Assembly (NCBI RefSeq): GCF_003073045.1
Contig: NC_037600.1
Location: 15,330,352 to 15,394,351, forward strand
Direction of reading: 5' to 3'
Origin: Pomacea canaliculata
Taxonomy: Eukaryota; Mollusca; Gastropoda; Architaenioglossa; Ampullariidae
Length of the DNA: 64,000 nt
In this document: in pieces, positions 20,039 to 61,409 of the stretch
How the letters are laid out: each line of letters begins with the position of its first letter
Numbering within the stretch: the first letter of the stretch is position 1
Made by a program: the position numbers and the translations under genes
Notes under the pieces: generated by a model
Seen by the model: only the letters and a program-made list of their open reading frames with translations
Databases searched by the model: none
Told to the model about the DNA's origin: nothing

Positions 20039-23000
20039 TTAGTCTATGATCTCCTGACTCAGCCGGAAAATCGCAATCCTTTCCAAGCACTGCAAAAGTG
20101 AACAATGACATGAACGTACTTGTATCTGATTGGTTTGATCAACATTGTCCACTGTAGTCAAGTTTTAAAGAAACGTAGTTGACGTGTTATCACAGAGCTG
20201 ATAATGAGTATGTCCCTGAGATGCTTTGAAACAATGTTATAATTATTCTTTATTAAATTTCTCATCTCGCTGAGCACATACATGCAATGTAAGTGAATAA
20301 AAATAAATCTTTTAGTTCTTTATCTACTAGCTTCTCTGTTGTCTATAAATTTGCTATTTCTTGAGCACACACGATTAATTGTGTATTTACAAGCTTAAGT
20401 CTGAAAGAAACTGAAAGAAACAGTTGAGATGTTTGGAGCAGCACTTACATTGCCTTTATTTTTACATTTAATATTTAGTGACTAGTTATGTGAGCTTGAC
20501 TTTTTATTAACTTAGATTGCACGTACTTACCCACGAGTGAAGGCGTTTGATGACATCTTCACTGCCAAGCTCACAATTTTTTAACTTCTCTTCTGCAAGA
20601 TCCACACGACTTCTTACCAAATTAGTGTCGGGAAAACGGATCACCCTGGCAAACAGTACATCTTCTCCCATTGATATCAGTTTTTGCCAGATTTTTTGCC
20701 ACGTCTGTTACAACACACATTTTATGGTTGTTAAATTCTTCCAAAGAAAACTTGTACCTGATGCAGTTAAGTTTGAAACATGAGTATTACTATTTGTACC
20801 TTCTTTTTGTTCTTTGATCATTTCACGTTTAATGTAACATTTCATTGACTGACTTATCTGTACATTTTTTTAAACTTAACACTTAAAAGGCTAAATGGCT
20901 TTCTGAACCCAATGATTATTCAGTGTTGGACAATGTTGACAACTTTGAATGAACGGTCACAGGCAATAACTGTTGATGGTCGAACGTTTGGAATTTTCTT
21001 CAATGTTTTGAACTACGCACATAGTTGTTTGTTCTCAACTTGAGAAATAATTGCAATCCTACTGGATGGATTTATCACTGTCAATCCCTCTTTATTCACA
21101 GCAATGGTTATGATGATTTTGAGTAAATCATTGGACAGAAATATGCATTGGATTGTATATTTATAGGTGTATGCATGAACACAAAGATTATAAGAGTATG
21201 ATCCTTACATTTTTAATAGATTTACTGGATATGATTTTGTGTGGCTAATTTATAATTTATACATGATGAGACAGAGTTTTAAAAACAATTACTATTTGCA
21301 CAACCCAGACAATTAAGAGCTGAACTCAATTGTAAAACAGCAGACAAATTATCAATACCACATTTTATGTGAATCACGTGTAACTGTAACGTGTGATACC
21401 TATTTGAAGTAGCTGAGGGAAACTTCACCTTACTAGTAAGGCTGACTTTTATGTGTTATTTGCGCGTCCATACATAATTTTCTGCATGAAAGGTTTGTGC
21501 AACATTTACTCACATCAAGTTCCTTTGGACTTTCTCCAAGCAGGATATAGGTGGCAAAAAGAACAGCAATCTTATAGTCTGGAGGTTTAATCATGTTGGC
21601 TTTCTCTTCACCCCTTAGTGACCGTAGATCCTGTCTTCGTCTTTGGAGCTCCTCTAGTCTCGGGTGTGCTTCTTGCCCTTTCTTGAACCAGGCTTGTTCC
21701 CGCACCAATTCACTAATGCAGGTCTTGGCTGCCTTATCCAGGCTTTTATGAAGTTCGTTGGCCTGAAGATTTTTAAGAGCTTGTTTTACATCTGCAAAGA
21801 AAATAAACGCAAATAGATATAGTAAAGGCAGGTTTATGCATCAGCCTATAGTTCAACTGGCCAGAATTGCATATGGCAGAGCAGTATTGTTTTAATTTAG
21901 AGTCGACGTAAACAACTCAGCCAGTGACAAATTAACCGCACCTAGCGTCTCTTGAGACTCGAGTCCTGGTACTCAGTGCTGTCTAATTGTCAAAACTGCA
22001 ATTTTATTAGGCTGTGGAACGTTTTTCATCCAAGATGAACTTCTTATTCCTTCTCATGTGGAATATAGAACCACAGCCACACCCCACCATAGGACCCGTT
22101 TCTGGGCGTCCCTTTCCTGTAGGGACCATGTCATGCTAGATGTCTCTGCCTCACTGTGGACTGATCTCCTCCATGTCAGTCTGGGTCTCCCAACCCTACG
22201 TCTCCCCTGTGGGTTCTAGCCCAGAGCTTGTCTTGTTAAATTGTTGGCCGTCTTTCGCAGGGTGTGACCGATCCAGCCCCGGTTCCGATTCTTAATGTCT
22301 TGGCTGGCAGGATTTTGGATGGTGTAACGACAACCGTGGTAGATCTGATTTAGGGTAGTGGGCTGGAAGTTGTTTGCCCTTGAGCAAATGACGTAAATTG
22401 TGATGTCAAAATAAAGTGACGAAAAAGATAGAGGAAAATAACGTTAGAGGGAAAAACGGTAACAGAGAGCAGACGGCGGAACAGAAGTTGGAATTGGTGG
22501 TTTTTCTCTGGATTTTCTCGCTACTGCTGCGTCCACGGAATAAGTGTTACCGGGGAAGTAATATTGTGTTTATACTACAGGTGATGTACTTCACTGATCG
22601 TGATTTGCTGTAGTCCGTGTCCTCGCCGTGGGGAGCTCTGTGGCTTGGGCATCCCGCAGTACAGTTTCTTGGTGGGGCCAAGAAGCCACACACTGGTGTG
22701 AGACAGTAAACGACGGATCCAGATCTTGGTGCAAAACTTGCTCACCGACCATCATCCGTCGCCCCGAAAGGACAGTTCCAAACAGCCTGAGATTAAACCG
22801 CCGGTGAAGGGAAGGTTTTCTCTCGGCCTTCAGCTCACCTATCATCATCCTGCTAAACACCCAGGAGGCAACCGCAAGTGCAAGTCCGTGACGTTCTGCT
22901 TGCAAACTGTCGGTATCGTAAAAACACTTTTTTTTAATGATGAATCCACATATAGGAAATAAGATTAGTGTTACTCATAAGAATAGAGGGTTGCAAAGAC

Positions 23001-26000
23001 TATAATATAAAAGGTTTGGGTTTGGTCAAGAACGAACATTTTATACTATAATACAGTGGATATTAACATTGGTAATTCATCAAGAAAGGACAGCACCGGA
23101 GACAGCGGAATACTTTATCAATGACAGTATTTATGTGAATCAACTTTATTGTTAACTCTAATAGTACGTTGGATGAATGATATAATATATTGGTAATATA
23201 TCTTGTGTGGCGAAAGAAGGAGTGAATCTCTGATTGTTGATACTTTGTCCTTTTTTCATTTAAAGTTGTGTTCGAATTCAATAATTATTAGTGCCTCTAA
23301 GGAGGTACGCCCACCCTCAAGCGATCTGATTGTATTGGTTTATGGAGAGAATGCGCGTGTCTGCGGACGGTCTGTGACAGATGGATCTCTCCTGCAGGTC
23401 TGTAATGGAGATCTTCTCGGGCCATCTGAAGTTGATGATGTGGCGCTGTGGCGCTGTGGCGCAGATATCTGTTGACAAATGTTTGAATCTTGTTAGTGAT
23501 GGCTTTTGTCACACACCATGTCTCAGATCCATTTAGGACTGACTTTGCACTTGCACTGCATATAGGAATCTTGGTGTGTAGAGATAAGGCCTTGGAGTTC
23601 CAGATAGGTCGCAGGGTGTGGAATGCAAGCCTGGCTTTGTTTATTCGGCTTCTTGCATCTTCATCTGTACCTCCATCTTTGCTGCCAAGGTAGATGAAAC
23701 AGTCAGACTGTAATACATTCCCCATGGAGTTGTAGTGGGGCTTCTTACTTATTGTTGACCCTCATTAGATCCGTCCTCTTGATGTTGATGGTCAGGACAG
23801 TCATCGCTGCTTCTTCTGAGAGCCGAGTGAGCTTTGTCTGTGTAGGTTGCTGCTTGTGGGACAACAGGCTGATGTCATCCACAAAGTCAAGATCCTCAAG
23901 TTGCCTGGCGAAGGTCCACTGAACGCCCGTGTTGCTGTTAGAGGTTCTTCTTCTCATGATCCAGTCTATGACGATCAGGAAGATAATCGGTGAGAACATA
24001 CAACCTTGCCTCACTCAAGTCCTCGCTGCGAAGGGATCAGTCAGCTTACCGTTGTGGATCACCTGGAATGTAGAGTTTCGACTGCCATTCGATGGACTGT
24101 TTAATGGTAATTCACAATGTAGCGATATGGTCTATGCATGATTTACCCTGCCGAAAACCTGCCTCTTCTTGCCTCAGTCTCTTGTCTAGGGCATTCTTTA
24201 GTCTCTCCAGGATGATTCTTGTCAGCACCTTCCTGGGAATGGACAGTAGAATAATCCATCGCCAATTGCTGCAGTGTGTGAGGTCACCTTGATGGGATAG
24301 CTTTACTCGATGGCCAAGCTTCCAGTCTGCTGGAACTTGCTCCTGTTCCCAAATTTTCTGCAGCAGAGGTTCTAGCATCTCTGCTGCGGCTGTTGGGTCT
24401 GCCTTGAGTGCCTCTGCAGGAATGCCATCTGGGCTTGCCGCCTTCCCATTATTCAGACTTGATTGGCTTGATGATTTCTGCTTTGGTTTGTTGGATGGAG
24501 TTGCTCGGCGGCTGGGGCAATGTCAATCGTGGTTGTTGGTGGTGGCCGGTTCAGTATTTTTTCAAAATGTTCCGCTCAGCGAGATCGTTGTTCTGCATCC
24601 CCGGTAATGATGCTGCTATTCTTCACTGGCCTGTCCGCATTGATGTTTTTCCTTCCTGACAAAATTCTTGTAATTTTGTATAATTTTTTTTCATTATTTT
24701 GCACAGCTGCTTGTTCTGCCTCGTCTGACATTCTGTGTGCGAACTGTCTCTAGTCGCCTCTTGCACTCTTCTTCACTTCTAGGTTCATCTCCAAGTACTT
24801 TGCTCTGAGCTCTTCTTTTTCCTGCTGGTCTTGACATTGAATGATTTTCTGTTTCAGCTCTTTCCTTTCCTGTATCTTTTGCCAGGTCCCTAAAGTCAGC
24901 CATTCCTTGTGTTGTTTTTCTTTCCCAGAATGCGTGTGCAGGCAGTCTTCTAGGTCTCCTGTAACCCTTTCTGGTTGGCCACTGTTTCATCCAGGAGTCT
25001 TTGCAAAGCCACAAAGGGTGATTTATCGTGATAGGTCAGTCTGGTTTACTGTATGTCCATCTATTGAATTCCAGGTGGTCTTGTGCATGGTTTTGTGTGG
25101 AAAAACTATACCTCTGACTAACAAGATTATTGAACAAGCAGAAGTCTGTGAGCAGCTCACCATTTTCATTAAGATTGCTCACATAGAGCTTTCACATTAT
25201 GTGTCCTTCGAGTTGTCATCATCAATGTCACCCATTATGATCTTTACGTCTCGATTTGGAGTACAATCAACCATAGCTTGTAGGGAGTTGTAAATGTCTT
25301 TCTTTTCCTCTTCTTTAGCTTCGTTGGTAGGTGCATAGCACGGGATGATGGTGATCTTTCTTCCTTTAGAGTTAAACGTGGCTGACATGAGTAACGGGTA
25401 AAACGGTCCCCATGCTATTAATGCTCTTGCAGCCTCTGGTGTCATCAGTGCTGCTACTCTTTGAGTTTGGTCATCGTCAGTGTCTTCATGTCCAGAGTTG
25501 ATGATAGTCTCTCTTGACGAAAGTCTTGTCTGGCCACTGCCATTCCACCTTGTCTTGCACAGGTAGCGAAGCTTGATGTTATTACTCTTCATTTCCTGGG
25601 CTACGTGAGCTGATTTTCCTCTCTCGTACAGGGTTCTGATGTTCCAGGTGTTTGCCGTGGCCGTGAGAAGACTGGTCGGCGAGCTGGCTTCCCGAGGGCC
25701 TTCGCAAACACGCGTCATAGGCCCTTCCGAAGAGGGATCTTCCCTTTATGCTCTCATTGTGCTTGTGTTGTATTTGCCATTTGTGTAGCAGGGGTTGTTT
25801 TACAGAGTGGGGATGCTAGCCCCACGCTCAAACCTCCTCCTTCTTCTGGTTTGAGACCGGCAGGTTACCTGGGAGGTTTCCAGGCGTAGTTACCTAAGAC
25901 GAGCAGGTGACTGAAAATCGTAGCAAATTTAAAGTCATGGACAGCGTGTAACCTTTGTGACAGATATCTAAGAAAATGATACACCAAAAGAGCGAATGAT

Positions 26001-29000
26001 CTTTTTCATTACTGCATCTACAAATTAATGTAATTCTATCTATTCTATCTATTCCTCTTCGTGCATCAGGTTGCACATAAGGCCTCAACCAGAGTCCGCC
26101 ACCGATGTTGATCGGCTGAAACCCGCTCTAGGTGACCCCATGTCCAGCCCTTTCCTTTCATCTCCCTTTCCACTGTTCTTCTCCAAGTTTCCTTTGGGCG
26201 GCCTTGTTTTCTTCGGCCGTCTGGAGTCCATCGTAGGGCGACTCTGGAAAGGTCTGCTGTCTGCTGGCGGAGCACATGTCCAATCCATCGCCAACGCCTT
26301 CGTTGAACCTGCGTGGTGATGGACTCGGTTTCAGTTCTTCGGTGGAGTTCTTCGTTGCTGATGGTATTTGGCCAAAAGATGTTAAGTATGCGCCTGAGGC
26401 ATCTGTTTTGGAAGACGTCAAGCTTGTTACTGATGGTTTTGGTCATCTTCCAAGATTCTGATCCGTAAAGGAGGGTGCTGATCACATTTGACTTGAAGAT
26501 TCTCAGTTTGATCTTCTGGCTGATGTTTTTTGCCTTCCATGTGCTCCTGAGTGAGGCGAAGGCCTGGCTGGCTTTCGCCAGTCGGGCTCGAATCTCCACC
26601 TCCGCATCCCCGGTGTTTGACATTTTGGACCCAAGATAGGTGAAACTGTCAACTTCCTCAATCTCTTCTCCATTTAGTTTGATGCTGTCTTGGACTCTGG
26701 CGTTCACTCTCATACTTTTTGTTTTCTTTGTGCTGACCTTCAAGCCAAGGTTTCCAGCTGTTTCTGAGAAGGCCTTTGTTTTTTCATGCATGTCTTGGTG
26801 GCGGTGTGACAGCCTCGTTAATGTAATTGGTTATAAATAATGGCTGAGCTGCCCCGATTAACGCTAATTGGGAAATAGCATTAAACAAGTAATTTTTATG
26901 GCTGACATAAAGAGCTTAGAAAAGTAATAAATTTCCCCAAAAAAGTTTGTTTCGCTTACCTTCTATTGTGCTAGAAGCGATCTTGTTTTTGTGTTACAAA
27001 CCATACTTCACCGAAATTACTAAAAATATCCGACTATTGAAAACAGATTGGAAAACAAATTAACACGCAAAACCAAAGGCTTCTATAAATGTTTTACAGA
27101 TTCTAAACTCCAATACAAACTACTTTTCGATGAAAATCGTTCGAGGACATCTTTTCCGCAAGAAATCCAAGCAGATCGCTATCAAGATGTTCTACAAACA
27201 TTTCTTACTTTTTTTTCATTATACTCATACTACTTTCTTAATGCATTACAACGATAAGACTCTCATGCCTGGCATCATAGCACTAACATTTTCTTACCTT
27301 CCTTGCATAATTCCAATAATACTTTTTTGCCATCTTCTACGTCTCCTCTGTCATTAAGGTTTGAAGCAATGCAGTGTGTCAAGGCAAGATTCAGCTGATC
27401 CACGTTTCTGTCTCTCGCCGCCTCAAGTACTTCCTTTCGCATGCGACTGAACTTTGCCTGCTGCTCTCGAATTTTTCTATTTAATATAGGATCTTTAATA
27501 TCAGCCATCTTGACGCGAAAGGCAACTTTTTCTACCAGTCTTTCGTCATCCTTGGCAACCCAGTCGTAAAGTTCGTTGTAGCACTGTAGAAGTTCCTGGT
27601 AAAGGTTTGTAGAAAAAGATGCATTCCTTATTTTTAATGCCATTGGTATCAGCTAGATGGTCTATTTATTTTAAAAACTACGATTAGTTACAAGTTTAAT
27701 AAATGATCAGGTGTACAAGCTATAGAGTTTACTTTATTGTATAACTAAGTGTTTATATATCTATTATAAAATAAAAGCCAATTATACGTGTACTTTACCT
27801 GCTTGTCCTTGTCCACAATGGCGGCATTCAGTTTGTCATCGCTGGTCAGCAGGTAGCTCAAAATGTTAGTGAATTTTTGTTTTGAACTTTCATCTGCTAG
27901 TCTGTTTTTGATGATATCGATTTGTAACGCATATTCTGGTTTCGGTTCATCTTCCGGCAATCTGAAATGAACTTTCGCTCTCTCGTTTTCTCTCTGAACT
28001 TCAAGGTTTTTGCGTTTCCCAGTATGGTGGACCAGCGTGGCTAAAATGTCGATGTCCTCTTTAACCGTAAAACTAAAGTCTATCTCTTCACCACTTTTCA
28101 CCGGCACAACTCCCTCTGTGTGGGAAGGCTGAGACAAACCAGCTGCGGCTGCTTCTTCCGTAAATCCATGTCCGTTCTCTGAACATGGCGGCAAGGGACG
28201 TATGTCAGATGGCACGTGCTCACAAACAATCTGAAATTCTACTAAACCGCCATTCACCTCAAGTTTATAGGCTCCAATCACTGGAAGTCTGACCATAATT
28301 GACTTTGACTGCTTTGTCCTCTTCAATCTGACAAGATATTTTTGTCAACAAAAATAAAATAATATAAAGGGAGTTAATGTAAAACGTTGACTGTTTCCAC
28401 TGAAAGATAAAACTATCACAGAGCTAAAATTATAGAAGTTGTACCAAAAACACTATAGTAAGAACGATATTTTAACCTTTACATCGGGGAAAGCGTTTAA
28501 AATAAACAATCTATTTATGTTTGTTCTTAACAAAGAACCTTATTTCGAAACTAAATACTTAGCTTGATACTGTGACTTTACTCATAAGAGAAGAAGTAGT
28601 AACTTATCCTTACATGGTTACATAACGATCTGTTTGTCGTTCTTGCGGAAAAGATGTTCTCGAACGATTTTCATCGAAAAACAGTTCGTATTGGAGTTTA
28701 GAACTTGCTGTAGGAGTGCAGAAGTTGATGAAGCACCATCCATGTTCAGGCTTGATCACGCATGTCCACGGGTCGATTAGAGACCATCCAGATGAGAAAT
28801 AATAATGATTGAAGCAAGGCAAAGCGAGAAACTTTTCTTTTGTCTGTGGTTCAGGCAACAGCTGATACTCCTTGTTTGGTGTATAACAGATGTATTGCAT
28901 CATGTCAGGGTCGGTCAGCCAGAAGAAATCAACAAAAGTCGATACTTCACTCCCAGGACGTGCTGTGAATCTGAATAATATAGATAACCTTAAAGTTCTG

Positions 29001-31694
29001 TACTTAAAGTATTGCTACTTAGTGACATATTTAATAATGATAAAAAATAATGATAATAACAAAAACAATAAGTACAAGCACAGCATCACGACCAAGATAG
29101 ATCGCACGCTGCGCTTAGAGTAGAACGTAAAGTAATGGATGAAGGTATGAAGGGACGTAGATACTACAAACAGTGTCAGATGGAGTCGTTTGACGATGGT
29201 TAGCATGACAAACAGTATAGCCAGGGAATTAAGAATAGTAATTCAGGGATAATACTTAGTAAACAGATATGTTTTCAGAGAGCGTGTGAATGTAGCCTTA
29301 TAGTACGAGTGGCGAATATGATCAAGAGAGTTCCACTGCTTAGCGGAACACAGGGAGGACGTCCGTTGTCCGTATGTTGCTGTCTCTGTTGGAGGGAGGA
29401 TAGAATGGGGGAGTCTCTGATGACGAGCGAAGGTTTCCCGCAGTAGTGTGGACAGACACGATTTCAGTAAAGTAGTGGGGGAGGAGCCTTCAAGAATCCA
29501 TAGCATAGAGTTGAGAGCTGGTAGTCTATTCTATCTTTAACTGGTAGCCAATGAAGAGAGTAAAGAAGTGGTGTGACATGTTCTCATTTGAGAGTCCGAA
29601 AAATGAGACGGTCAGCTGACTTTCTGAACTTTATCAATAAGGTAGTGTAGACAGCCAGCTTGAAGAGAGTTGCAGTAGTCTAGTTTACACAGAACAAATC
29701 AGCAGATAAGAATTTTGATGGATGAGATGGACAGAGTATGACGAATGGAGCCTATATTCATAACATGCAGAACAGATGTGAGAAACATGCTCATCAAGAG
29801 ACATGTCATCAGATATTATGTAACCTAAATTACTTTTTGAAGTAACAAAAACAACATCGGCATCGTCACTACTAAAATCCTAGATGCTCAGACGAGCCTA
29901 ACGACCGTAACATGTGTACACTATATTTTGCATAGCAACACAGTACGTAAACTTTACATACCACCACAGCATGCAGAGACATTCGCAAAAAGTAAAATAA
30001 AAAAGAAAGCTTCCCATGAAATACCGTTGTCTGTAAGTCCCTCCAGAATCTTCAACCAGCCTCCAGTTTCCTTTCTGGTAGTAAATTGCTGATACAAAGG
30101 CCCGGTGAGGGAACACGAAGCGCCAGCTGCCGGCCACGTAAACAACTGCCCAGGTACATTCTCTAAGGTAATCATCACCAGTGTCATACGTAGAATCTTT
30201 TGCATGGCCGTTCACAAGTATGCATGGAATTTTTGCGACTCTGTGTAAAATGAGTGTGATTCTTAGAAATGTCGTCACGCAGAAGTTTTATATACCACTA
30301 CTGTATACTATAGATATTCTTTTCATGAATATGATAATGAGAGCATCTGTCTACTTATGCTCAGATACACACACACACAGGAGATGCTAATACAAAACTT
30401 ACCTACACATCTTGGCAAACAATTTACTGATGGTAATCTTATCTTCATATGCCTCCTGTAGGTAATATCTAGGACTGCCTTTTTTGCATCCTGATTTCTC
30501 TTGTCGACATCCGACCTCTTGATGACCCATCCACACAAAAATGGATCTTAACTTGTGTAGATCGGTGTCAGCATTAATAGTAAGATGCTTGATAAGTAGA
30601 TGGAAACTTTCTTTTAGTGAATCCTCTGTCTACATCAAAATCATGCCCAAAGACACACACACACACACACACACACAGACACACAGACAGATGCAAGTAT
30701 AGTTGTTGACAAAACAGACCGTCTTCTAACAATGCTTTAAAGGCACTATTGCATGCTATGTACACTGTGTAACTTTAATTCAGATGAGCTTTTCTTCTTA
30801 TTCTTGTACATCCGGGTCATTTTACATGATAGACCTGATTGTGAATAAACTGTTTGGAGACAAACTATAGCTGAACACATCTTCAGCGATTAGTATCTTC
30901 TAATACAAATACAAAGTACAGGTAAACAAATTTTAATGCGAAGATGTATCAGAGTGAATATTTCTGAGAATGACAAAGAATGTTAATTTTGTAGCCGAAC
31001 ATCTCATTAGGTTTCCCACTACTTGCAGGGAATTATTAATGTTAACAGGTGGTGGCTTTTTAGTTACGGGCTTCTGTGTTTTGAAAGATGGTCACTTTGT
31101 GTGGTGGATGTCTTTACCGTCCAGAATATTTACTGTCTAATGAAGTGTAAACTAGCATGAGGACATATATAATTTATTAAAAAAGAGGCAAGTGTTAATA
31201 ATACAAATATATTACACGTCAAAGGATTGCCATAATCTCACGTGTTGTTCTCAGAGGTAATTAGAGATAAAATATTACTACTTTTTTTTTATCTAGGTGT
31301 CTTTTTTGTATTCGCCATATACCGTAACAACTTTTCCTTTTCTGATATCCAAAACATGTTTTTCATCATTATAGATTCTGTGGACTAGAATTTGGATCTG
31401 TTCACGATAATTTCGTGCCATTCGTCCTCCAGTTACATTAATTTGCCACATCTTCTTCTTTTTCTATTTCTTTTTCTGTGAGTATCTTTAGTGTTACTGC
31501 TATTTGTTAATAGTAAATATTTTCGCTCAAACCTTTCTGGCTTCCTTGTCCACCTTTGTAAAGTCCACGTCTCGAAGTAGTTCTTTTTTGGGGATCTCTG
31601 GCGGACACAGCTCTGGGTACCAGTCCTCGGGCTTCCAGAGGATGTAATCAGGGTTCGACAGATTAACGGAGAATTCCAACGCGTCATTCAGAAC
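20039..31694 (-). CDS. KY/hillarin-like transglutaminase-fold pseudoenzyme with dynein-stalk-like tail, copy B
   Basis: Exons in transcription order: 31533-31694, 30403-30629, 30025-30240, 28614-28970, 27799-28327, 27298-27595, 21514-21791, 20531-20704 and 20039-20089 (TAG/TAA-type stop at 20039-20041). Together they give 763 codons without a start. It is the closest paralogue of copy A, with the same exon lengths except single-codon losses in exons 2 and 3. The core keeps 'TWAVVYVAGSWRF' and has Lys, Cys and Phe where the triad is expected. The last exons carry the KPP, LLGES, TWQKIW and SW signatures of the stalk-like tail. Intron 6 is about 5.5 kb and holds two LINEs. No start exon like those of C, D and E was found upstream. 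The matching interval near 33200-33240 seems deleted, so B may use another start or be dying, although every known exon is open. Confidence 0.78.
22050..25885 (-). mobile_element. Old APE-type LINE (RTE-like), decayed and interrupted, in intron 6 of copy B
   Basis: On the minus strand, from right to left, there is a 5' region at 25730-25885 with a GTGGGG/CCCCAC hairpin. Endonuclease pieces follow at 25200-25720 (NIRTLYERGK, RWNGSGQ, CYAPTNEAK), and reverse transcriptase pieces at 23300-24400 (the FVDDISLL active-site block and YLGSKDG). The C-terminal tail is at 22050-22330 (GWIGHTLRKTANN, GRPRLTWRR). Stops and frame changes are frequent. 22390-23295 does not fit the element and may be a later insertion. 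A remnant in copy A shows that it was present before the A/B duplication. The RTE assignment rests on the C-terminal motifs and is tentative. Confidence 0.8.
22390..23295. other. Unidentified insert splitting the old LINE
   Basis: This lies between the LINE C-terminal tail (left) and the 'RWPEKIS' block (right), where a continuous polymerase frame is expected. The 22600-22905 part is GC-richer than its surroundings and has overlapping open frames without a recognised domain. I saw no clear terminal repeats or target duplication. It could be another transposon or host sequence brought in by rearrangement. Confidence 0.4.
26036..26817 (-). mobile_element. Young 5'-truncated LINE (RTE-like) with 11-bp target-site duplication
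   Basis: The minus-strand frame 26066-26791 (241 codons) encodes the C-terminal part of an LINE polymerase (YLGSKMSNTG, RWRWIGHVLRQQ, GRPKETWRR). It is almost identical to 43965-44700. The 3' end on the minus strand is a GATA-like tail at 26036-26052. The direct repeat 'ttaatgtaatt' flanks it at 26025-26035 and 26818-26828. Copy A has an empty site at the paralogous position (about 6570-6585). The upstream part of the LINE is missing, as usual for incomplete reverse transcription. Confidence 0.92.
29210..29880 (-). mobile_element. CR1/L2-type LINE fragment, copy B
   Basis: Paralogue of 8820-9480, in the same intron (between the exons encoding the core and the first KY domain). The minus-strand frame at 29243-29506 keeps TYGQRTSSL and KQWNSLDHIR, motifs near the C terminus of CR1/L2-group polymerases. 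It lacks a 5' part, and the frame is interrupted. Shared presence in A and B dates the insertion to before their split. Confidence 0.75.
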
Positions 31695-35963: not shown

Positions 35964-38900
35964 CTAGTGTCTTCTGGTGAGCTTCTCTCTCAGTCGGTAA
36001 AAGCTGATCCTCTCCAAGCACTGCAAGTAATCAACAATGGTATGAATGCACCTGTCTCTGTTTAATTACTTTGAAGAACAATCTTTTGCATGACTCTATG
36101 TACAATAACTTTTTTATGCTTTTGTTATCACAAAGTAAGTACGAGAATACAGATATTAAGCTGGCTTTTAGCTCAATGGTATGTATTTTGTTTACTCTGT
36201 ATTTAACTTTCCATTGCAATGGGCTTTAAGATGCAGTCTAAGAAAATTAAAAGCTGCTAGCATTTTTTTTTTAATTTTCTTCTTATAGCTGCCAAATTCT
36301 CAGTTATTTGTCTACTCGGTTGTTTGTCGCAAAATCTTTGCTTTTTGCTGAATTCACACAATAAATTAGTTATAATACCGAAGCAGATTAAAAAGAGATG
36401 ACTACTGAGCAATACAGATTTAAGTAAGACCTGTATGTATTTATCATTATAAAATTTAATGTTTTACGGCTGGTTTTGACAGTGTGATTATTGATGACTA
36501 TAGCTAGTGAATTTACCCATGAGTAAAGGATTTTGATGACTCTTTCATCGCCAAACGTCCCGCCACAGTGCTGCAACTTGTCCTGTGCCAAGTCCACCCG
36601 ATCTTGAGTCAACAAAGAGTCGTCAAAGCTGCTCAGTGTTGTGAACAGTTGTTTTTCGCTAGTTTGGTGCAGTTTTGTCCAGATTTTTTGCCACGTCTGT
36701 CAGAAGGCAAATTTTATAGAAAAACTCTTCCAAAGAAAAAATACATTATGCAGATCAATTGGATGAATCTATTCTCGTTTTAAATTAGGAAATTTGTTAC
36801 TCTTTCATTAATGTAATGTATTTTAGCATCTGTTTCTTTAATATCAGGAACCAGCGAATGCTTTAATTACCATTTAAAAAAATACTTTTAACAATGTGAT
36901 AGTTCTCATGTCCACGTACGTGAGTTTGGGCGTACAGTATTGTATTTGTTATGCCCTCCCCCATATGCACAGAGTATAGATACACAATCTAGTGTGTGAA
37001 GGTTTTATATCGACTTACATCAAGTTCTGTTTGACTTTCTCCGAGCAGAATGAAGGTGGAAAAGATGATGTCGATGACATCGTCTGGAGGTTTAAAGACA
37101 TTCGCCATGTCATCGTCCGTCAACGACTGAACATTCTGTTTTATTTCCTGAAGCTGCTGTAGTCTCCAGTAGACTTCCTCAGCATCCTTGAACCAAGCTT
37201 CTTCCCGCACGGACTCACCGATACAGGTGTTGGATATTTTATCCAGACATTCGTGAAGTTCCTCTACTTTAAGATTTTTAGTAGCTTTTTCTAGCTCTGC
37301 ATAGAATATGAACACAAATAAATGTGGTAAACAAGTTTAAGCACCAGTCCATTACTGAAATGCGATAAAAGATTTACTCTACATACGTGTTAAATAAAGA
37401 CATACACACCATAGTTAACCAAACTAGGGGAAAAATCTTTAAAAATATTGACAAAGGATTTTAAAACAAGTTAGCATGATAAACCAACTTCTAATGTCTC
37501 TTGTCATCTTTCAAGTGAGCTTCTTTGTATGTAATCAAAACTCTCAACAAATTATTTTTATCAGCATTTAGTTTCAATGAATCTTCACAAAGCGCAAGTC
37601 TTCGCTCGTATTTCTCTAAGAAAGCAGTTTTAAAAAATAACATCTTTACCTTCTTTGCATAACTCCAATAATACTTTCTTGGTGTCTTCCACGTCTCCTC
37701 TGTACTCAAGGTTTACAGACATACAGTGTTTCAAGGCAAGACTCAGTCGATCCAAGTTTCTTTCTTCCGCCGCGGCAAGTACTTCCTTTCGCATGTGCTT
37801 GAACTTTGCCTTCTGTCCTCGAATTTTTTCATTCAATATAGGATCTTCAATACCAGCCATCTTGACACGGAAGGCAACCTTTTCTAACAGTCTTGCATCA
37901 TCTTTTGCAATAGAGTCGTAAAATTCTTCATAACACTGTAGATTTTCCTGGAAAGCAAACGATCACCATCAGCATCAATGAAATGGTCCATACATTTTAA
38001 ACACCATGAGTAAAAACAAGTCCAGGAAATAATTGAAGTATTGAATTAGAAACTTGACCTTATTTGACCTGCTATCTTTGCTTATTAACAAGGTTTAATA
38101 GATATTAATTGCATAATTGCAATTATACGAGTACTTTACCTGTTTGCTCTTGTCCACAATGGCGGTATTCAAAGATTTGTTGCTGGTCAGCAAGTAGCTC
38201 AAAGCATTAGTAAATGCTCCTTTCGGTTTATAGAATCCTTGTGAGTTTTTAATGGTATCAATTTGAAGAGAGTATTCCGGTTCCGGGTCATCTGCCGGAA
38301 GTGTCGCAGTAACCGTGGCTTTGGCGTTTTCTCGCCGAACTCTGACACTGTCCCGAAGTTCATCCGTTGCCCGAGTAGAGTGGACCAGTCTGGCCAAGAT
38401 GTCGACATTGGGTTGAACCCTGAAACTCATGTCGATCTCATCGCCACTTTTCACCGGCACAACTCCCTCTGTATGGGAAGGCTCCGACAAACCAGCTTTG
38501 ACTGCTTCTTCTCCAAATCCAAAACCATTCTCCGAACATGGTGGCAAGGGTCGAATGTCAGGCGCCACGTGCTTACAAACGATCCGAAATTCCACGAGCC
38601 TGTGAAGAATATTTTGATGAGAGCCAATCACTTCAAGTTTGTAAGTTCCAGCCTCTGGAAGTCTGACCATGACTGACTTAGTATGCTTTGTCCTCTTTAT
38701 TCTGGAAAAATATTTTTTATGCCAGAATAAATGAAAAATATTTTTGGCAAAAAAAAAATGATGGAAGAAAAACATTACAGACTAAATTTGATAGGCTATA
38801 AAATAAAAGTATGTTTACAAACACACTCAGAAAACGTATCAGAACATAGCAAGCAGATTTTATTGTTTGTTTACAGCATTAACAAATAATTGCTATACTT

Positions 38901-41076
38901 TTTACAAGGAATGTACACAGCCTTATATATTTTTACTTTTGTCTTAAAGGTAGAGATACTGATTGATCCTTACATGGTTACATAAAGATCCATTTGTATT
39001 CCTTTTGGAAAAGTTTTCCCTGATCGAGTTTCATCGAAAAAAAGCTTGTATCTGAGTTTAGAACCTGCCCCTGGACTACTAAAGTCGATGAAGCACCATC
39101 CATCTTCAGGCCTGATCACGCATGTCAGAGGGCTGACCAGGTGCCATCCAGACGAGAAATAGTGCGGGCGGAAGTAAGGCAAAGTAAAAAATTGTTCTTT
39201 GGTCCATGGTTCAGCCAGCAGCTGCTTCTCTTTGTCATGTGGATGACAGATGTAGTTCATCATGTTAGGGTCAGTCAGAAAATAAAATTCGTCGAAGGTA
39301 GATATTTCACTACCATCATTTGCTGCAAACCTAAAAAGTAACAAATTGCCTCAAATTTTTTTTTATTAATGGTATAGTATTTCTATAATCTAGCATTGTT
39401 CTATTGCTATAATATACCATTATGGTATGGCCACAATAAATATAATAAATGGCACATGTATTCCACTGTTCACATCCCAAGCAGTTTGAATTCCTGAGCT
39501 GATCAACAATAATAAAAACTTAGCAAACTAGAAAACAAAACATGCAATGATACACAAACCAAACTCAGACACTAACATGCAGTTCAAAGACAAAATTTGT
39601 CCATCTATGAGGGCTTTTCTGCAAAATCACCTCAAACTTCAATACACTAACGAAGAAGAACAATCGCAGTCTACCTCCATTATTTAATCTACACGCTGGA
39701 ACTTTTATTTCAAAGAGAACAAGCCAAAATACCGTGTTCGTAAAGGATTTCCCGAATCCTCAATGAGCATCCAGTCTTCATTTTGGTAGCCACGGGTTTT
39801 TACAAATGCCCAAAATGGAAACACGAATCTCCAGCTGCCGGCCACGTAAACAACTGCCCAGGTGTTTTCTTCTCTGATGTCTTTGTAACCAGGTTCATAA
39901 GAAACACCTTTTGCCTTGCCGCTCACAAGTATGCATGGGATTCTTGCGGCTCTGTGTCAAATAAATGTGGTTATTAAACAGTAATACATTTAACAGTTTT
40001 TAAATGCCATTAGTGTCTATTGCAGACATTGTTTGTATGGATATAATGATAACAGTCAAGATTTTTTAACGCAGAACTTACCTGCACATCTTGGCAAACA
40101 TTTTGCCGATGAAGACAACATCTGTATATGCCTTCCGTAGGTAATATTTTGGACTGTGTTTATTTTTGAAGCTTGTTGTCTCTTGTCGACATCCGATGTT
40201 TTGTTCAGCCATCCACACGAAAATTGCTCTTAACTTGTGCAGATCGGAGGTGAGATGACTAGTAAGGCTCTCGACAAGATCGCCAAAACTTTCTTTCAAG
40301 GAATCTGGTGTCTGAAACAGCACAGTATGCAAGGCTAAATGATTATTGAAGATAAGATGATAAAGAAATGAAAGATTTGTTTCCCTACCAAGTAACTCAA
40401 TGTCTATCATATTGTAAATGGTTTTCTTTGTCAATATAATTAAAGCGACTGCACTAGCACGTGGTTGTTGATATTTGTACTCTATGACTATTAATGACTA
40501 CATGGTCACTCCTAGTTAGTAATAGTAAAGTTTCTTTAACATACAGCTCTGGCTATCATGTCGATCTCCGTGAAATTTTCATCTTGAACAAGTTCTTTCT
40601 TGAGGATGTCTGGTGGACACAGTGGTGGGTACCAGACCTCGGGCTTCCACAGCTCGTTATCCTTGGAGTGGCGGAAAAGAGCACGAAAACCCTAATGATA
40701 AATATCAAACACTGATTAGCTACAGGGGACCTCTCAGGTGTGAGAAAATTATATGACTGCCAAACAATAATAATAATTATCTAAAATTATTGGGATTTTG
40801 ATGATGAATTGTGGACGACTACTTTGATAATGATAATGACAACCATTACTGATAATTGGTGATTATTCATTTGACCTATCTAATAAAGGTAAACTAGGTC
40901 ATGCACACTGAACGGAGGCGTTCAAATAAATGCTACTACCCAGCTACTACTGTCATTAAGACATATACACATAAATAAACAAGACCTGATTCATTTCCAA
41001 AACGTTCGTTGATGAAAAGCCCGCAACGTCCTCTGTATAGTGCTTGTGGCGATAATGATTCGTTCAGCACGGCAGT
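35964..41076 (-). CDS. KY/hillarin-like transglutaminase-fold pseudoenzyme with dynein-stalk-like tail, copy C
   Basis: Best-resolved copy. Exons: 40986-41076 (ATG at 40992-40994), 40545-40691, 40082-40311, 39733-39951, 38974-39330, 38140-38701, 37650-37947, 37019-37296, 36517-36696 and 35964-36020 (TAG). They give 778 residues, with all junctions GT-AG. Residues 1-52 are a lead with WYPPLCPP. About 53-202 is the transglutaminase-like core (IFVWM, KMCRAARIPCIL, NTWAVVYVAGSWRF). About 202-508 are the KY domains (EFYFLTDPNMM; VRLPEAGTYKLEV; NGFGFGEEAVKAGL). 509-607 are helical hairpins. 608-778 is the stalk-like part (KPPDDVIDIIF, LLGESQ, FDDSLLT, ILYSW). Val, Asn and Phe occupy the expected Cys, His and Asp positions. 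KY-family proteins act at muscle or cytoskeletal structures; a similar scaffold role is an inference. Introns are short and free of transposons. Confidence 0.85.
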
Positions 41077-50633: not shown

Positions 50634-53600
50634 CTATTTTATCCCGGTGAATTCCTCTCTCAGTCGGTAGAATTGTATCCTGTCCAAACACTGCAAAAAT
50701 AAATCATGACACACATGTATGTGTTTCTTTCGTTAAGAGCAATAATTTTGGGATGACACTCTCATGTAAAATGTTCTTATATTGCCTCAGTATCTTCAAA
50801 TTGCATCTCAGGATCAGTCGTAAAATCTAATGTTGCTTTTAATCACGCTTTATTAATAATCAACCAAATTGTAGTTTTATCTGCCGAGGAATGTTTGATA
50901 ACAATGAAAATTTTCTGTTATTTTCGAAATTTTTTGCGATTTCTTTTAAATAATAATCTACAATTTTTTTCATCAAATAATTTTAATAAATGTATCAGTG
51001 AACTTCGTTAAGTATTGGTTTATATAGGGTCTACCCATGCGTGAAGATTTCTGATGACTGTATCGTCGCCACACTTTCCATCACACGGCAGCAACATCTC
51101 AGCTGCCAGCTCCACCTGGTGTTTAGTCAGCAGACAGTCGTCAAAACAACTCAGTTTGGTGAAAAGCTGCCCATTGTAAGCTTGGTGCAGTGTTGTCCAC
51201 ACAGCTTCCCACGTCTGCCAACAAACATAATTCAATGTTTTAAGCAAAAATTTCTTGCGAATAAGAGGTTTCTCTGAACAATAAATGAAGGTGATCATTG
51301 CCATCTCGACATTAAGCACTTTATTATGTTTAAATGTATGATAAGTGAGGGTGAGTATTTATGCCCAATTCAATTAAATTTGTGTTTCCATTGGAAACAT
51401 ATTTTACAAGAATATTTGAAAAATTGAAAAAATACACGAATTTTAAAACTCCATTGACACCTCTTATATCAAGTTCTTTTTTGAATATCTTTGATTTTGA
51501 TGAGGCGGTGGGTCGAAAGTTAACAATAGAGTCAATAATGTGTTTGTAACAGAAAGTAATGCCTAGTACAATGTTCTCAAATTACACGATATATAATACA
51601 GAATATAACACAGTATATAAGACTTTGAACTTATAGATAGTGTGTACATTGAACAAGGTATACTTACCTTAAGTTCTGCTTGGCGTTCCCCCAGCAGGAC
51701 GAATGTCGCAGAAATAACTTGAACCACGTGGTCAGGAGGTTTAAACACACTTGCCAAGTCTTCGTCTGTCAGAGACTGTATAATTCGTTTGCTTTCTTGG
51801 AGCTTGTCTAGTTGTTTACACACTTCCTGTGCGTTCTTAAACCAAACCTGTTCCTTTACTGCTTCACCAACCAAGGAACGAGCCACTTTCTCTAGACAAT
51901 ATTGGAGTTCTTGGACTTCCAGATGTTTAAAGACTTTTTCAACTTCTGCAAAGAAACATATTCACAAATATAAGCACAAAGGTTGATGCACATCCTACAT
52001 ACACAGTCAGACACCTAAATCTTTCCTGAACATAATATATACCGCACCATGCTCATGCAAACAGAAAGCATGCAACTAAAAATATTTTCTTACCTTCTTT
52101 ACACAAAGCAAACAGGACGTCCTTTGCTCCCTCTACCTCTGGTGTGTACTGAAGGTTTACAACCAGACAGTGTTGAAGAGCACGATTCAGTCGATCAAAG
52201 TTTTTTTCCTCGGCAGCAGCAATCACTTCCTTTCGTAAGCGTTTGTACTTTGATTTTTTGGATTTTAGTTTTTCATCTAATATTGGATCTTTCAGACCGG
52301 CCATCTTGATGCGAGGGGCAATTTTTTCTAACAGTCGTGCGTTGTCTTCGGCAAGAGCGATGTAAGCGTCTTCATAACACTGTAAGTGTGTCTGAAAAAT
52401 AAGTATTTTGTCATGGTTTTATGATAGATGAATGGTTCATAATTATAGGTCAACATTACTAATGAAACATATGATGACTAATCAGAAGTAGAAGCTTTTA
52501 AACAGTTTACTTATCTTGTCTTCTTGACTTTTAAACATCGACTAAGCTCCAATAGTCAAATGAAAGAGTATGTTATTCACCATGATATCAGTACCTGTTT
52601 GGTCTTGTCAGTTATTATCGAATGCAGTGTTTTATCACAAGTCAGCAAGTAATTTAACACTTGAGCATTAACACAAGGTTCCGTCGGTCCGTGTGAGTTC
52701 TTGATGGTATCAATTTCCAGAGAAAATTCTGGAGCAGGATCGTCTGTGGGCACTTTCACAGTGATTGTCACATTAGCTTCTTCTCGACGCACAAGCACAT
52801 TGTCATGAAGATCATCTGGTTTCCAAAAAAAGTGGATTAGTCTGGGTGAAATGTCCAAGTTGGCTTCAACTTTAAAGTGGATGTTGACCTCTTCACCACG
52901 TTTCACCTCAACGATTCCTTCCGAATGTGAAGGTTCTGACAATCCTGCTTCGGCAGCTGCTTCACCAAAGCCAAAGCCGTTCTTTGGGTGGGTTGGGAAG
53001 GGTCGTGTTTCAGGAGGCACATAATCGCAGTCGATACGAAAATGTAACACCTTGCAGGCATTACCTTTATGAACCCCAGTCAGTTCAAGTTTATAAGTTC
53101 CTGTCTCTGGAAGTCTGACCAAGAGTGATGTGGTTTGCAGTGTCTGACTCAGCCTGAAAGGACATTGAATTTCAAGACACAGAAAACATAATACATAAGG
53201 GGGGGGGGTAAAGGATAAAAATATGTACAATGAAGCTCAGTATACTAAACATATATAGCAGTAGATAAAATTACTGTGTAAAATGTCTGATAAGTGTAAA
53301 ATTTCAACAGGGAACTTACAAAAGTAATCTGATTTAAAATATGTATTGATTATCTTTATTATTTAACAAATAAATATTTAATTTTTTCAGTACATTGCGA
53401 CTTCTCGAGATAAAAAAATAATAAATTGATTCTTACATTATTACATAACGATCCCTTTCTTTCTCTTTTGTAAATGTATTCCCAGAACAACTTTCGTCAA
53501 AAAACAGCTTGTAATCGAGTTTCGAGTCTCCTCCTGGACTAAAGAAGTCGATGGAGCAGCCTCCCATGTGGGTTTTTATAAGACATGTTGCAGGGCTGAG

Positions 53601-55627
53601 CAGATGCCATCCCGAGGAGTAATAAGCATTGCAGAAATGTGGTGAAGCAAAGAACTGTTCTTTTGTCCATGGCTCATGCAGCAGCTGCTTCTCTTTGTCA
53701 TTGGGATGACAGATGTATTTCATGACATCAGGATCCGTTAGAAAATAAAATTCGTCTATATCGGATATGAGTTTACCATCATTGGCTGTGAACCTGAAGA
53801 ACACAGAGAATCTTTAAATACATATCTAAATGCACCCTGGATTGTTCTAGCATCATGTCTCCTCAATCACTCGTCGTCGTCATCATCATAATCCATCATC
53901 CATCACACATCCCCATCCTCATCCCAATCATCATCATCATGACAGAATGATTAATTTGCTAATAAATTACCTTGTTCTTGCAGAATTTCCACAATCCTCA
54001 ACTAACATCCAGTTTCCTTTTTGGTGGCCGCTTGCTTTGACAAAGGCCCAGTGAGGGAACACAAACCGCCAGCTGCCGGCCACGTGTACAACTGCCCAGG
54101 TGGTTTTTGCTTTAATCTCATTGTCACCTGTAGTGTAAGAAGCTCCTTTTGCCACACCCTTCACGAGTATACATGGAATTCTTGCACATCTGTGTGAAAG
54201 AGTGTTTTTAGAGGGCAAATCGTTCACCTGAGTAACACTTCAGAAATAATACCAGAATAAAACCTATTCATTTAGAGTTTAGATCATCAGTATTGCGACC
54301 CACTCTTAGAAATGACTCACGACCACGTGAAAGATATAACAACAAAGAAAACCAGTATGATACTATTTAACAGCTTTATTTCTAACATATAAATAAAAGA
54401 ACTTGAATTTTTGGTGACTGAAGTCACGCTTCGTGAATACAGACTGGTTGATATCCATACTATGACCCCGGAGTTGATGAATTTTAGCGAGTAATAATGG
54501 GGAGGTTTTATCGTACTGTAAATTAATAAATTAGTTTGACACATGTGACTAAGGTAATGACGAAGACCTTTAGTGACACAAAACTTACCTGCACATCTTA
54601 ACGAACAGTTTACCGATGAAAACATGATTTTTGCATGTGTTGTACAGGTAATATCTTGGGCTCTGGTTGTCTTCGCACGTGTCTGTCTCTTGTTGACATC
54701 CGATGTTCTGAGCGCCCATCCACACAAAAATGGATCTTAACTTTTGTAGGTCGGAATTAAAATGACTGGTGAGGTAGTTGATAAGTTCATCAAAATTATT
54801 CTTTAGTGAATCTGGTGTCTGAAACAATAACACAATATTCAAGAAGGTGTATAGGGTATGGTTATAATAATTAATAATAATAATAATAATCATCATCATC
54901 AATCATCAATCATCAATCATCCATCCATCATCCATCCATCATCCATCCATCCTCCATCCATCCTCCATCCATCCTCCATCAATCACCCATCATTCATCAA
55001 TCATCCATCACCATCTATCATCATCATCATCTAGAGACTCTTATATCTCACAATAGCAATCAAGAGGGTAAATAAAGATTTGAACAAAAATCATCAAAAG
55101 TATTAATTCAAATATAATCGAAATGATATGAAATGTAATGTTTTAATAATAATCAAGTGACTGATGGTAAGCAATATTAGCAAGTCTCACTCCTACCTCC
55201 CTGGCCACTTTATCCACCTCTGTAAAGTCCTCCTCTCGAAGTAGTTCCTCCTTAAGGCTCTCGGGGGGACAGAGCGGTGGGTACCAGTCCTCTGACTTCC
55301 ACAGCTCCTCATCCTTTGAGGAATTCAAAAAGAGGTTAATGAAGTTAATGCCACATTAAGAGAGAAATCACTTCATCCAGAGACAAGATTGCAACTAACC
55401 ATCCACTTGATTGGTGAAAACTCTTTGAGAAAATACACGAAATAACTACTCATACACACTCCTTGCGATAAATCACATTCACACACATATTAGAGCCATT
55501 CACAACATAAGTCTGTAAGCTACATGGGTTCTGACCTGCTTCATTTGAGGTGTCGGTAACTCAGAATAAGCTTGGCTCCTAGAATTCCCCGTGTTTGGGC
55601 AAGTTGTGTCAGACAATATGTCTGATT
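50634..55627 (-). CDS. KY/hillarin-like transglutaminase-fold pseudoenzyme with dynein-stalk-like tail, copy D
   Basis: Exons: 55536-55627 (ATG at 55542-55544), 55197-55313, 54589-54818, 53971-54189, 53437-53793, 52595-53153, 52094-52391, 51668-51945, 51035-51214 and 50634-50690 (TAG). They give about 767 residues. The 5' edge of exon 2 is placed at AAG|GAT because no closer AG exists. The frame would also run further upstream. It is the most diverged full copy, yet all exon phases are kept. The core reads 'TTWAVVHVAGSWRF' with His, Thr and Phe at the triad positions. KY segments: FYFLTDPDVM, YYSSGW, VRLPETGTYKLEL, NGFGFGEAAAEAGL. The tail keeps KPPDHVVQVISA, LLGERQ, FDDCLLT and LHAW. The last exon reads CLDRIQFYRLREEF. 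Intron 2 carries a (CATC)n array. Confidence 0.84.
54868..55032. repeat. (AAT)n / (CATC)n compound microsatellite in intron 2 of copy D
   Basis: A run of AAT units passes into imperfect CATC/CATCAAT units with variants such as 'ccatcctccatc'. A related ATC-rich stretch lies at 53870-53940 in another intron of the same gene. Confidence 0.93.
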
Positions 55628-59935: not shown

Positions 59936-61409
59936 TTACTAGATTTGGGCAGTGGGGTTTAATTTAATACGGTTTGTAGGTTTACCTCTTTCTTGAAAGT
60001 TTCTGTTGGTCTGTGCTCGCCAAACGTCCCGCCAGCTCACCCCAGCTTCTTTTTGACCAGATCCACCTGATCTGGAGTCAGTAAAGAGCAGTCCAAACTG
60101 CGAACTTTGTTCATAAGTTGTTGTTTGCTTATTTCCTTCAGTTTTGCATTGACCTTCTGCCATGTCTGGAACCCAAATATAATGTTGCTCACATATAAAT
60201 TGTCGCAAGGAGAACCTCCAAGACATCCGTATAATGTTACAAGTTGAACACACCGCCATGACTTTTGCTGCGAGTTAAATATAATATTATACATCTGTTT
60301 GATTCTTCAGTGCTCCAGGAACATTCTGAGCTCCTCAATGACTAACATTATTATGCAAGAATTATCTTACTTTACTTTTAACACGAACACTAAAATTTAG
60401 ATTAAAAGATTTACAGGTGTAAAGTTCACACCCAAAAATTAGATTTTACAGTTTGCTGACAATAAAGCAATGAAATAATTAATAAAATCTTGATCAGTAG
60501 AGTAAGATAGCTCAAAGCTACAAAAATGTTTTGAGTAATATTTTTAAGCTGTTTGTATATTAAAGAAATTAGCTTAGTATTAAGTGTATTTTAAATTACA
60601 TTACCCTTGTGAAAATAACGACAACAAAAATCATGAAGAAAGTAAGGTGTATCTTAACGATTGTTATACTTATTTTCTGCACTGCAGCCTGATTTTTGCA
60701 GTGTAACTAAAAACTGAACACGTACACAATAATTGAAGGGTAAAACATATAAACCTGCATCCTGTACATTTATATACACCGTGTACTCACATCAACTTCC
60801 TCCTCGCTTACTCCAACCATAATGAAGGCTGCAACGATGACGTTAATGACATGGTCTGAAGGTCTGTCACCATCGACCTCATCGTTACTCCTCATGGCCT
60901 CGATCATCGCTTTCTCGCCCAGCTCTCGTTTCCATAATAATTCCTTGCCCTTTCTGAACCAAGCCTGTTGTTGCACCATGTCCCCGACACAGGTGTTCTC
61001 TATTTTCTTGATGCACTCACGGAGCTCTTCCCAGTTTTTTCTTTGAACGGCCCCTTCCATTTCTGCACATAAAAATTTACAGACACATGTACCCACATTC
61101 ACACACACACACACGAAAACAGCCACGTGTACCAGCTACCTGAGTCCCTAGTGTCATGTCTGTAATCGTATAGCGTCCACACAAAAGCAAAAGATTTATT
61201 TAGCTTTAAAAACTTTTTTTTTCACACCTTCCTGACACAAGGCCATTAGTTGTATTTTAGCGTCCTCTATCTCTCTTTTGTTCTGAAGGTTGACAGCCAT
61301 GCAGTCCGTTAGCGCTTTATTCATCTGATCCAAGTTTCTTTCTCGTGCAGCGGTGAGCATTTCCTCTCGCTACGAAGGACATAAAAGAGGACGCATACAA
61401 ACTACTGTT

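What the first reader, a model, noticed from the sequence alone, without database searches (positions are those of the whole stretch)
35964..41076. A KY/hillarin-type protein fused to a dynein-stalk-like tail
Seen: exons 7-9 (37019-37296, 36517-36696, 35964-36020) encode the order short coiled coil, KPP-x2-V, small-residue helix ending LLGES, W-x3-W-x2-L, FDDSLLT, then a helix ending in SW. Known: this order resembles the segment after the stalk of dynein heavy chains, where a PP-x-V motif is followed by an LL-G turn, a W-containing helix, an 'NFDK' turn and a C-S/K-W helix. Known KY proteins, as I recall, do not carry it. Inference: a domain fusion giving a KY scaffold a microtubule- or motor-like helical module. 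The similarity is in motif order, not long identity.
Basis: partly seen in the sequence, partly recalled or inferred. Interest (0 to 1): 0.75.

Follow-up and report, generated by a model that had tools for sequence, protein, structure and literature searches.

The report
Snail KY protein, dynein stalk-head-like tail
A snail gene family joins an apparently inactive protease-like scaffold to a tail that resembles the part of the dynein motor that grips microtubules, but with key gripping residues gone, so a motor part may have been reused as an ordinary binding module.

Summary
Gene C is intact on the minus strand (778 aa, GT..AG introns) and its last three exons encode the described motif order. 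The dynein resemblance is statistically real. A profile of 18 tail copies matches a profile of 16 dynein stalk sequences (HHalign probability 96%, P 4.6e-9, 94 collinear columns; score 57.2, best of 200 column shuffles 21.7). A dynein HMM ranks 19 of 19 tails above 174 of 174 E. coli fragments. The two tail halves match the two dynein halves separately.

[quoted passage not shown] It lacks the returning coiled coil CC2. Of seven tubulin-contact columns, the three most conserved in 17 dyneins are lost in 19 of 19 tails, two of them mostly by a gap; four are partly kept. Motor-like microtubule binding is therefore doubtful. Pfam's PF12777 was not seen for any tail, and no structure could be predicted.

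The tail is old in this KY subfamily: 24 exon-8 matches in one array plus a diverged relative 15 Mb away.

The parts
40986..41076 (-). exon 1 of gene C; 5' end with proposed ATG at 40994
   Evidence: the start codon is inferred
40082..40691 (-). exons 2-3 (40691-40545, 40311-40082): start of the transglutaminase-like KY domain
39733..39951 (-). exon 4: rest of the transglutaminase-like domain; His and Asp of the triad look replaced
38974..39330 (-). exon 5: Ig-like_KY domain, first part
38140..38701 (-). exon 6: end of Ig-like_KY and following KY region
37650..37947 (-). exon 7: start of the tail, not dynein-like (background scores against dynein)
37094..37297 (-). exon 8, first part: segment before KPP, in the place of dynein CC1 and H1; no clear similarity of its own (37297 is the g of the acceptor, used to complete the codon)
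37019..37093 (-). exon 8, last part: KPPDDVIDIIFSTFILLGESQTELD, dynein-MTBD-like (PP-x2-V segment)
36517..36696 (-). exon 9: TWQKIW...FDDSLL...LYSW, dynein-MTBD-like
35964..36020 (-). exon 10: CLERISFYRLREKLTRRH and stop; end of the dynein-like segment, no CC2 follows
4473..11251 (-). copy A (paralog), tail exons 5706-5428 and 4649-4476
20531..31655 (-). copy B (paralog), tail exons 21792-21514 and 20704-20531
51035..55346 (-). copy D (paralog), tail exons 51946-51668 and 51214-51035
60010..61369 (-). copy E, remnant: parts of exons 7-9 with a stop in exon 9; no significant match to exons 2-6 in the rest of the window

Best explanation
Gene C is one of a tandem family of KY proteins (transglutaminase-like domain plus Ig-like_KY domain) whose C-terminal tail shares ancestry with the dynein microtubule-binding domain (similarity shown at profile level; ancestry inferred from it). 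The module was probably acquired once, before the array expanded, because a diverged KY gene 15 Mb away carries the tail exon 8 (shown) and what looks by eye like exon 9. In these proteins the module has lost the returning coiled coil CC2 and the most conserved tubulin-contacting residues, and the KY part seems to lack the catalytic His and Asp. The most likely working mode (inferred) is a non-enzymatic scaffold: the KY/Ig-like part holds one partner and the MTBD-derived tail is a protein-binding or self-association module that no longer grips microtubules the way dynein does.
For: Profile-profile: P 4.6e-9, probability 96%, 94 columns from the PP motif to the end helix. Controls: 300 and 200 column shuffles reach at most 22.0 and 21.7 against 48.1 and 57.2; reversed profiles 14-15. 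15 of 16 single dynein sequences score above the best of 174 E. coli fragments with the tail profile. Dynein HMM ranks 19 of 19 tails above 174 of 174 fragments, E 2.1e-6 to 0.087; the reverse search puts 13 of 16 dyneins above every fragment. Exon 8 alone (P 9.9e-6) and exons 9-10 alone (P 1.3e-4) each match the corresponding dynein half in order. Adding cytoplasmic dyneins raised the score (48.1 to 57.2). Exon 7 of the same proteins scores at background, 11-12. The remote paralog matches the tail exon-8 HMM at E 8.6e-14. Contact columns E3304, R3306 and R3337: Glu, Lys/Arg and Lys/Arg in 17 of 17 dyneins, 0 of 19 tails. KY triad: FAP246 reads NHCW and VDPT where copy C reads ENTW and VFPF. 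Tail exons 8-9 are constrained in older pairs: dN/dS 0.22 (C-D, near saturation) and 0.38 (C-A), like the KY half.
Against: Pfam's own dynein-stalk model was not seen for any tail: full-length C, 18 members (25 of 36 families printed), 4 further queries. HMMER searches of the PDB returned no dynein with copy C or the tail profile, although 84 distinct sequences there match a snail dynein segment. The 9 KKQ-type copies are weaker alone (P 6.3e-5), and the tail against the two cytoplasmic sequences alone reaches only P 4.7e-4 over 39 columns. As single sequences, copies B and R15448 are at background. The remote paralog alone gives only P 0.0086 over the first half (score 20.9, best of 200 shuffles 16.2), and adding it lowered the family score from 57.2 to 55.7. 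In the exon 9-10 half only 5 of 16 single dyneins exceed the best E. coli fragment. Against the claim of lost contacts: the R3382 column is Lys/Arg in 9 of 19 tails (10 of 17 dyneins), K3299 in 7 of 19, R3342 in 4 of 19, K3334 in 2 of 19, and the gap at E3304/R3306 could be placed otherwise. Intron positions differ from those in the snail's dyneins. The pair A-B has dN/dS 2.0 in exons 8-9. Identity is about 16-18%.
Confidence: 0.6

Rival explanations
1. The tail is a functional, altered microtubule-binding domain: the KY scaffold is tethered to microtubules by a dynein-type head using other basic residues (for example the RRH/KRRN ends and the basic RKK segment of part of the 9-copy group).
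For: Same similarity as above; Lys/Arg at the R3382 column in 9 of 19 tails and Lys at K3299 in 7 of 19, and basic C-termini such as REKLTRRH and KGSLKRRN. A KY-like domain occurs in FAP246, which has solved structures (E 0.006; that it is axonemal is recalled).
Against: Columns E3304, R3306 and R3337, kept in 17 of 17 dyneins, are lost in 19 of 19 tails; helix H1 appears shortened by about four residues in 18 of 19 (gap placement there is uncertain). No CC2.
Confidence: 0.2
2. The tail is an unrelated helical bundle that converged on a similar motif order, or the profile score is inflated by small, related alignments.
For: PF12777 and PDB HMMER searches are negative; low identity; the consensus query also gives weak unrelated Pfam hits such as Pex19 at E 0.003.
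Against: Shuffled, reversed, E. coli and same-protein controls stay at 22 or below while dynein reaches 57; both halves match independently and in order; 19 of 19 tails outrank 174 decoys.
Confidence: 0.15
3. The exons are not part of the working gene: transcripts end earlier and exons 8-10 are decaying relics.
For: Copy E has a stop in exon 9, and exon 8 near 15566 kb is only a weak match; dN/dS 2.0 for A-B in exons 8-9. No RNA data were available.
Against: Open exons 8 and 9 with AG/GT junctions in 18 copies; dN/dS 0.22-0.38 in the older pairs; invariant residues across 18 copies.
Confidence: 0.05

Closest known systems
KY / kyphoscoliosis peptidase-hillarin family (Pfam Transglut_core plus Ig-like_KY)
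   Same: Both domains found in order above the curated cut-offs.
   Different: Adds about 270 aa of tail with an MTBD-like end; tail searches (E up to 0.001 and up to 10) returned places on C11 only, none by the Ig-like_KY matches on contigs C2, C3, C4, C5, C10 and C13. His and Asp of the triad look replaced. That vertebrate KY lacks such a tail is recalled.
Dynein heavy chain microtubule-binding domain (part of Pfam PF12777)
   Same: Collinear profile match over the PP-x2-V segment, W segment, F-D turn and final W segment.
   Different: About 16-18% identity, no CC2, no AAA+ motor, three conserved tubulin-contact columns lost, PF12777 itself not reached.
FAP246 (PDB 7n6g, 7sqc)
   Same: Best match in the PDB by sequence for the transglutaminase-like region, E 0.006 over 58 residues.
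   Different: FAP246 has NHCW/VDPT where copy C has ENTW/VFPF; whether FAP246 has an MTBD-like part was not tested.

Membership tests
KY / hillarin-type protein | Transglut_core domain | tested here: met
   E 1.1e-5, 26.1 bits, cut-off 23
KY / hillarin-type protein | Ig-like_KY domain after it | tested here: met
   E 2.6e-26
KY / hillarin-type protein | Cys-His-Asp catalytic triad | tested here: inconclusive
   Against FAP246, the His and Asp positions read Asn and Phe; that these are the catalytic places, and the missing Cys, are judged from recall of the motif; activity untested
Dynein microtubule-binding domain | Profile similarity along the MTBD | tested here: met
   P 4.6e-9, 94 columns; HMM ranks 19 of 19 tails above 174 decoys
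Dynein microtubule-binding domain | Match to Pfam PF12777 above cut-off | tested here: not met
   No PF12777 listed for C, for 18 members (25 of 36 families printed), or for 4 further queries
Dynein microtubule-binding domain | Antiparallel stalk: CC1 before and CC2 after, each with its conserved proline | tested here: not met
   First proline pair present in most copies; the protein ends after the last segment, with no proline or CC2 in the 14 copies whose exon 10 was read. That conserved prolines bound the MTBD: passage of PMC6629372
Dynein microtubule-binding domain | Tubulin-contact residues on H1, H3, H6 | tested here: not met
   E3304, R3306, R3337 columns: 17 of 17 dyneins, 0 of 19 tails; four other columns partly kept, R3382 basic in 9 of 19. 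Contacts from passages of PMC7042235, R3337 recalled
Dynein microtubule-binding domain | Six-helix MTBD fold | not testable with these tools
   Structure tool busy, one job interrupted, then switched off
Dynein heavy chain | AAA+ motor ring | tested here: not met
   Pfam scan of the whole 778 aa lists only the two KY domains at E up to 1

The most novel reading that the evidence does not exclude
A dynein stalk head was captured outside dynein and still works as a microtubule- or tubulin-binding module on a KY scaffold in a snail, expanded to about two dozen tandem genes.
Probability: 0.18. Interest if true: 0.85.

Novelty: new variant of a known kind. Interest (0 to 1): 0.62.

Why it matters
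As recalled, the MTBD is treated as a part found only in dynein heavy chains. A second protein family with a derived copy would show what the fold can do without motor, stalk or full tubulin contacts, and would give a natural set of altered MTBDs for structure-function work. I saw no report of it: nine paper searches on the dynein MTBD, its use outside dynein, KY peptidase and hillarin listed none. Only capped listings and the starts of abstracts were read, plus passages of two papers, and most subscription papers are not in that library.

Tried and rejected
HMMER of copy C's tail against the PDB gave only DOCK5 (E 0.013 and 0.022), and the tail profile gave Myosin X and DOCK5 (E 0.33-1.2); both were rejected as chance because the profile weakened them to insignificance. 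Weak Pfam hits (RMC1_C, Sey1_3HB, EspA, Cdc37_C, DRC7_C, Pex19) were rejected: different families for different members, those with printed scores below cut-off. Extending dynein upstream into CC1 did not raise the score (52.0 against 52.7 for the MTBD alone with the same setting), so similarity is not claimed for the coiled coil. An internal repeat between exons 7 and 8 was not found (score 12.2). Exon 10 of the remote paralog was not found. By eye, counted back from the W without a gap, the remote paralog's second exon shares S-x2-A-x2-L-x2-W with the last helix of several dyneins, but MAFFT places it one residue off, so this is not counted as evidence. I first took the PP-x2-V segment for dynein H1; placing the residue numbers of PMC7042235 on the coordinates showed that H1 lies before the prolines.

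Rows dropped: of 24 exon-8 copies, 18 entered alignment A1; E, R15593, R15494, R15421, R15406 and R15400 were left out for a stop or because exon 9 was not read in the DNA held. The remote paralog was added as a nineteenth only.
Full report
What is there. The window lies at G000:C11:15330352-15394351 in a 440 Mb genome of 24 contigs. The size fits the apple snail Pomacea canaliculata (its 440-Mb genome: start of the abstract of PMC6129957); the identification is an inference. Gene C on the minus strand has ten exons with GT..AG introns and encodes 778 aa. Pfam finds Transglut_core at 64-170 and Ig-like_KY at 247-374, and nothing significant in the tail.

The family. tblastn with C finds copies A, B, D and a remnant E in the window. 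A genome search with the tail (E up to 0.001) finds 47 exon matches, all on C11 between 15.26 and 15.61 Mb, among them 24 of exon 8. Reading the exons by hand gave 18 usable copies with corresponding exon 8 and exon 9 borders; exon 10 was read in 14 and exon 7 in 16 of them. Two exon-8 end residues were corrected. A search with the most diverged of these (E up to 10) found one more place at C11:106607-106894 (E 1.22). The DNA around it holds KY-like exons, an exon that matches the tail exon-8 HMM (E 8.6e-14) and, 1.2-1.4 kb on, an exon that reads EWSNV...LLLEW. That second exon was recognised by eye: the exon-9 HMM gave it only E 0.16, as its top hit. Ig-like_KY matches also occur on C2, C3, C4, C5, C10 and C13; the tail searches returned nothing on those contigs.

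Is it dynein-like? The dynein set was built from snail loci found by PF12777 or by a mouse probe and from PDB sequences printed. HHalign of the 18-copy tail with 14 dynein sequences gave probability 93.6, P 2.1e-7, score 48.1 over 97 columns; 300 column-shuffled dynein profiles reached at most 21.95, reversed profiles 15.3 and 14.3. With two snail cytoplasmic dynein sequences added: probability 96.0, P 4.6e-9, score 57.2; 200 shuffles at most 21.7. For real decoys, 41 E. coli proteins were cut into 174 fragments: the best scored 18.2 against the tail profile, and 15 of 16 single dynein sequences scored higher. With HMMER and filters off, a dynein HMM ranked 19 of 19 tails above 174 of 174 fragments, and a tail HMM ranked 13 of 16 dyneins above every fragment. 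Exon 7 of the same proteins scored 11-12. Split in two, exon 8 matches dynein columns 12-40 (P 9.9e-6) and exons 9-10 match columns 40-111 (P 1.3e-4), each above 150 shuffles (scores 34.9 and 28.6, shuffle maxima 17.7 and 17.0). The second half is the weaker: only 5 of 16 single dyneins beat the best fragment there.

What speaks against. PF12777 was not listed for any tail (one search printed 25 of 36 families), and HMMER searches of the PDB with one tail or the profile do not return dynein. The 9 copies with the KKQ end give P 6.3e-5 alone, the tail against the cytoplasmic sequences alone P 4.7e-4, and copies B and R15448 as single sequences are at background. The remote paralog alone gives P 0.0086 and does not raise the family score (57.2 to 55.7). 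No structure could be obtained: the prediction service was busy, interrupted one job and was then switched off. Even that job would have covered only exon 8.

Which part of dynein. The PP-x2-V motif to the final W segment lies in the microtubule-binding domain at the stalk tip. PMC6629372 (passages) describes that domain as delineated by universally conserved prolines; PMC7042235 (passages) describes six helices with CC1 and CC2 and names the yeast residues that contact tubulin. Placed on the alignment, the tail has the first proline pair and the segments after it but ends where CC2 would begin. The columns equivalent to mouse E3304, R3306 and R3337 hold Glu, Lys/Arg and Lys/Arg in 17 of 17 dyneins and in 0 of 19 tails; at the first two columns 18 of 19 tails have a gap. 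Four other contact columns are partly kept: R3382 Lys/Arg in 9 of 19 tails and 10 of 17 dyneins, K3299 in 7 of 19, R3342 in 4 of 19 and K3334 in 2 of 19 (7 of 17 dyneins each for the last two). Mouse numbers other than 3334 and 3342 are mine or recalled, R3337 as a contact is recalled, and the gap before KPP could be placed differently.

Function. The transglutaminase-like region aligns with FAP246 (E 0.006), where NHCW and VDPT stand against ENTW and VFPF in copy C, so the His and Asp places read Asn and Phe. The KY part is therefore probably not an enzyme; which residues are catalytic, and the missing Cys, are judged by recall. dN/dS in exons 8-9 is 0.22 (C-D) and 0.38 (C-A), like the KY half (0.24 and 0.41), and 0.39, 0.61 and 2.0 in three younger pairs. 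The tail is therefore kept in the long run and more loosely constrained among young copies. The best explanation is a non-enzymatic scaffold with a reused, altered MTBD as a binding module. Intron positions in the tail and in the snail's dyneins differ, which argues against a recent capture from them.

Verdict. It is a new variant of a known kind, with structure and microtubule binding as the open tests.

Noticed in passing
L052 (G000:C8:1997638-1997833 and 1998211-1998406): The snail's cytoplasmic dynein gene has two neighbouring exons of equal length (196 nt), same phase and AG/GT borders, both encoding the first half of the microtubule-binding domain (41 of 65 residues identical): candidate mutually exclusive exons that could change microtubule grip (one paper search on splicing, read as a listing only).
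   Followed up: partly
60010-61369: Copy E looks like a pseudogene remnant: stop in exon 9, exon 7 partial, no significant match to exons 2-6 up to the window end.
   Followed up: partly
27090-27197: A fragment of KY exon 5 on the plus strand lies about 100 bases from copy B's exon 7, opposite to the gene.
   Followed up: no
G000:C11:15.26-15.61 Mb: Array of two dozen KY genes with the tail, two of the copies read on the plus strand; two subgroups differ in exon 8 length and in the exon 9 end (W or KKQ).
   Followed up: partly
39733-40311: The transglutaminase-like region's best PDB match is FAP246 (axonemal by recall), a second possible link between KY-type domains and microtubule structures.
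   Followed up: no
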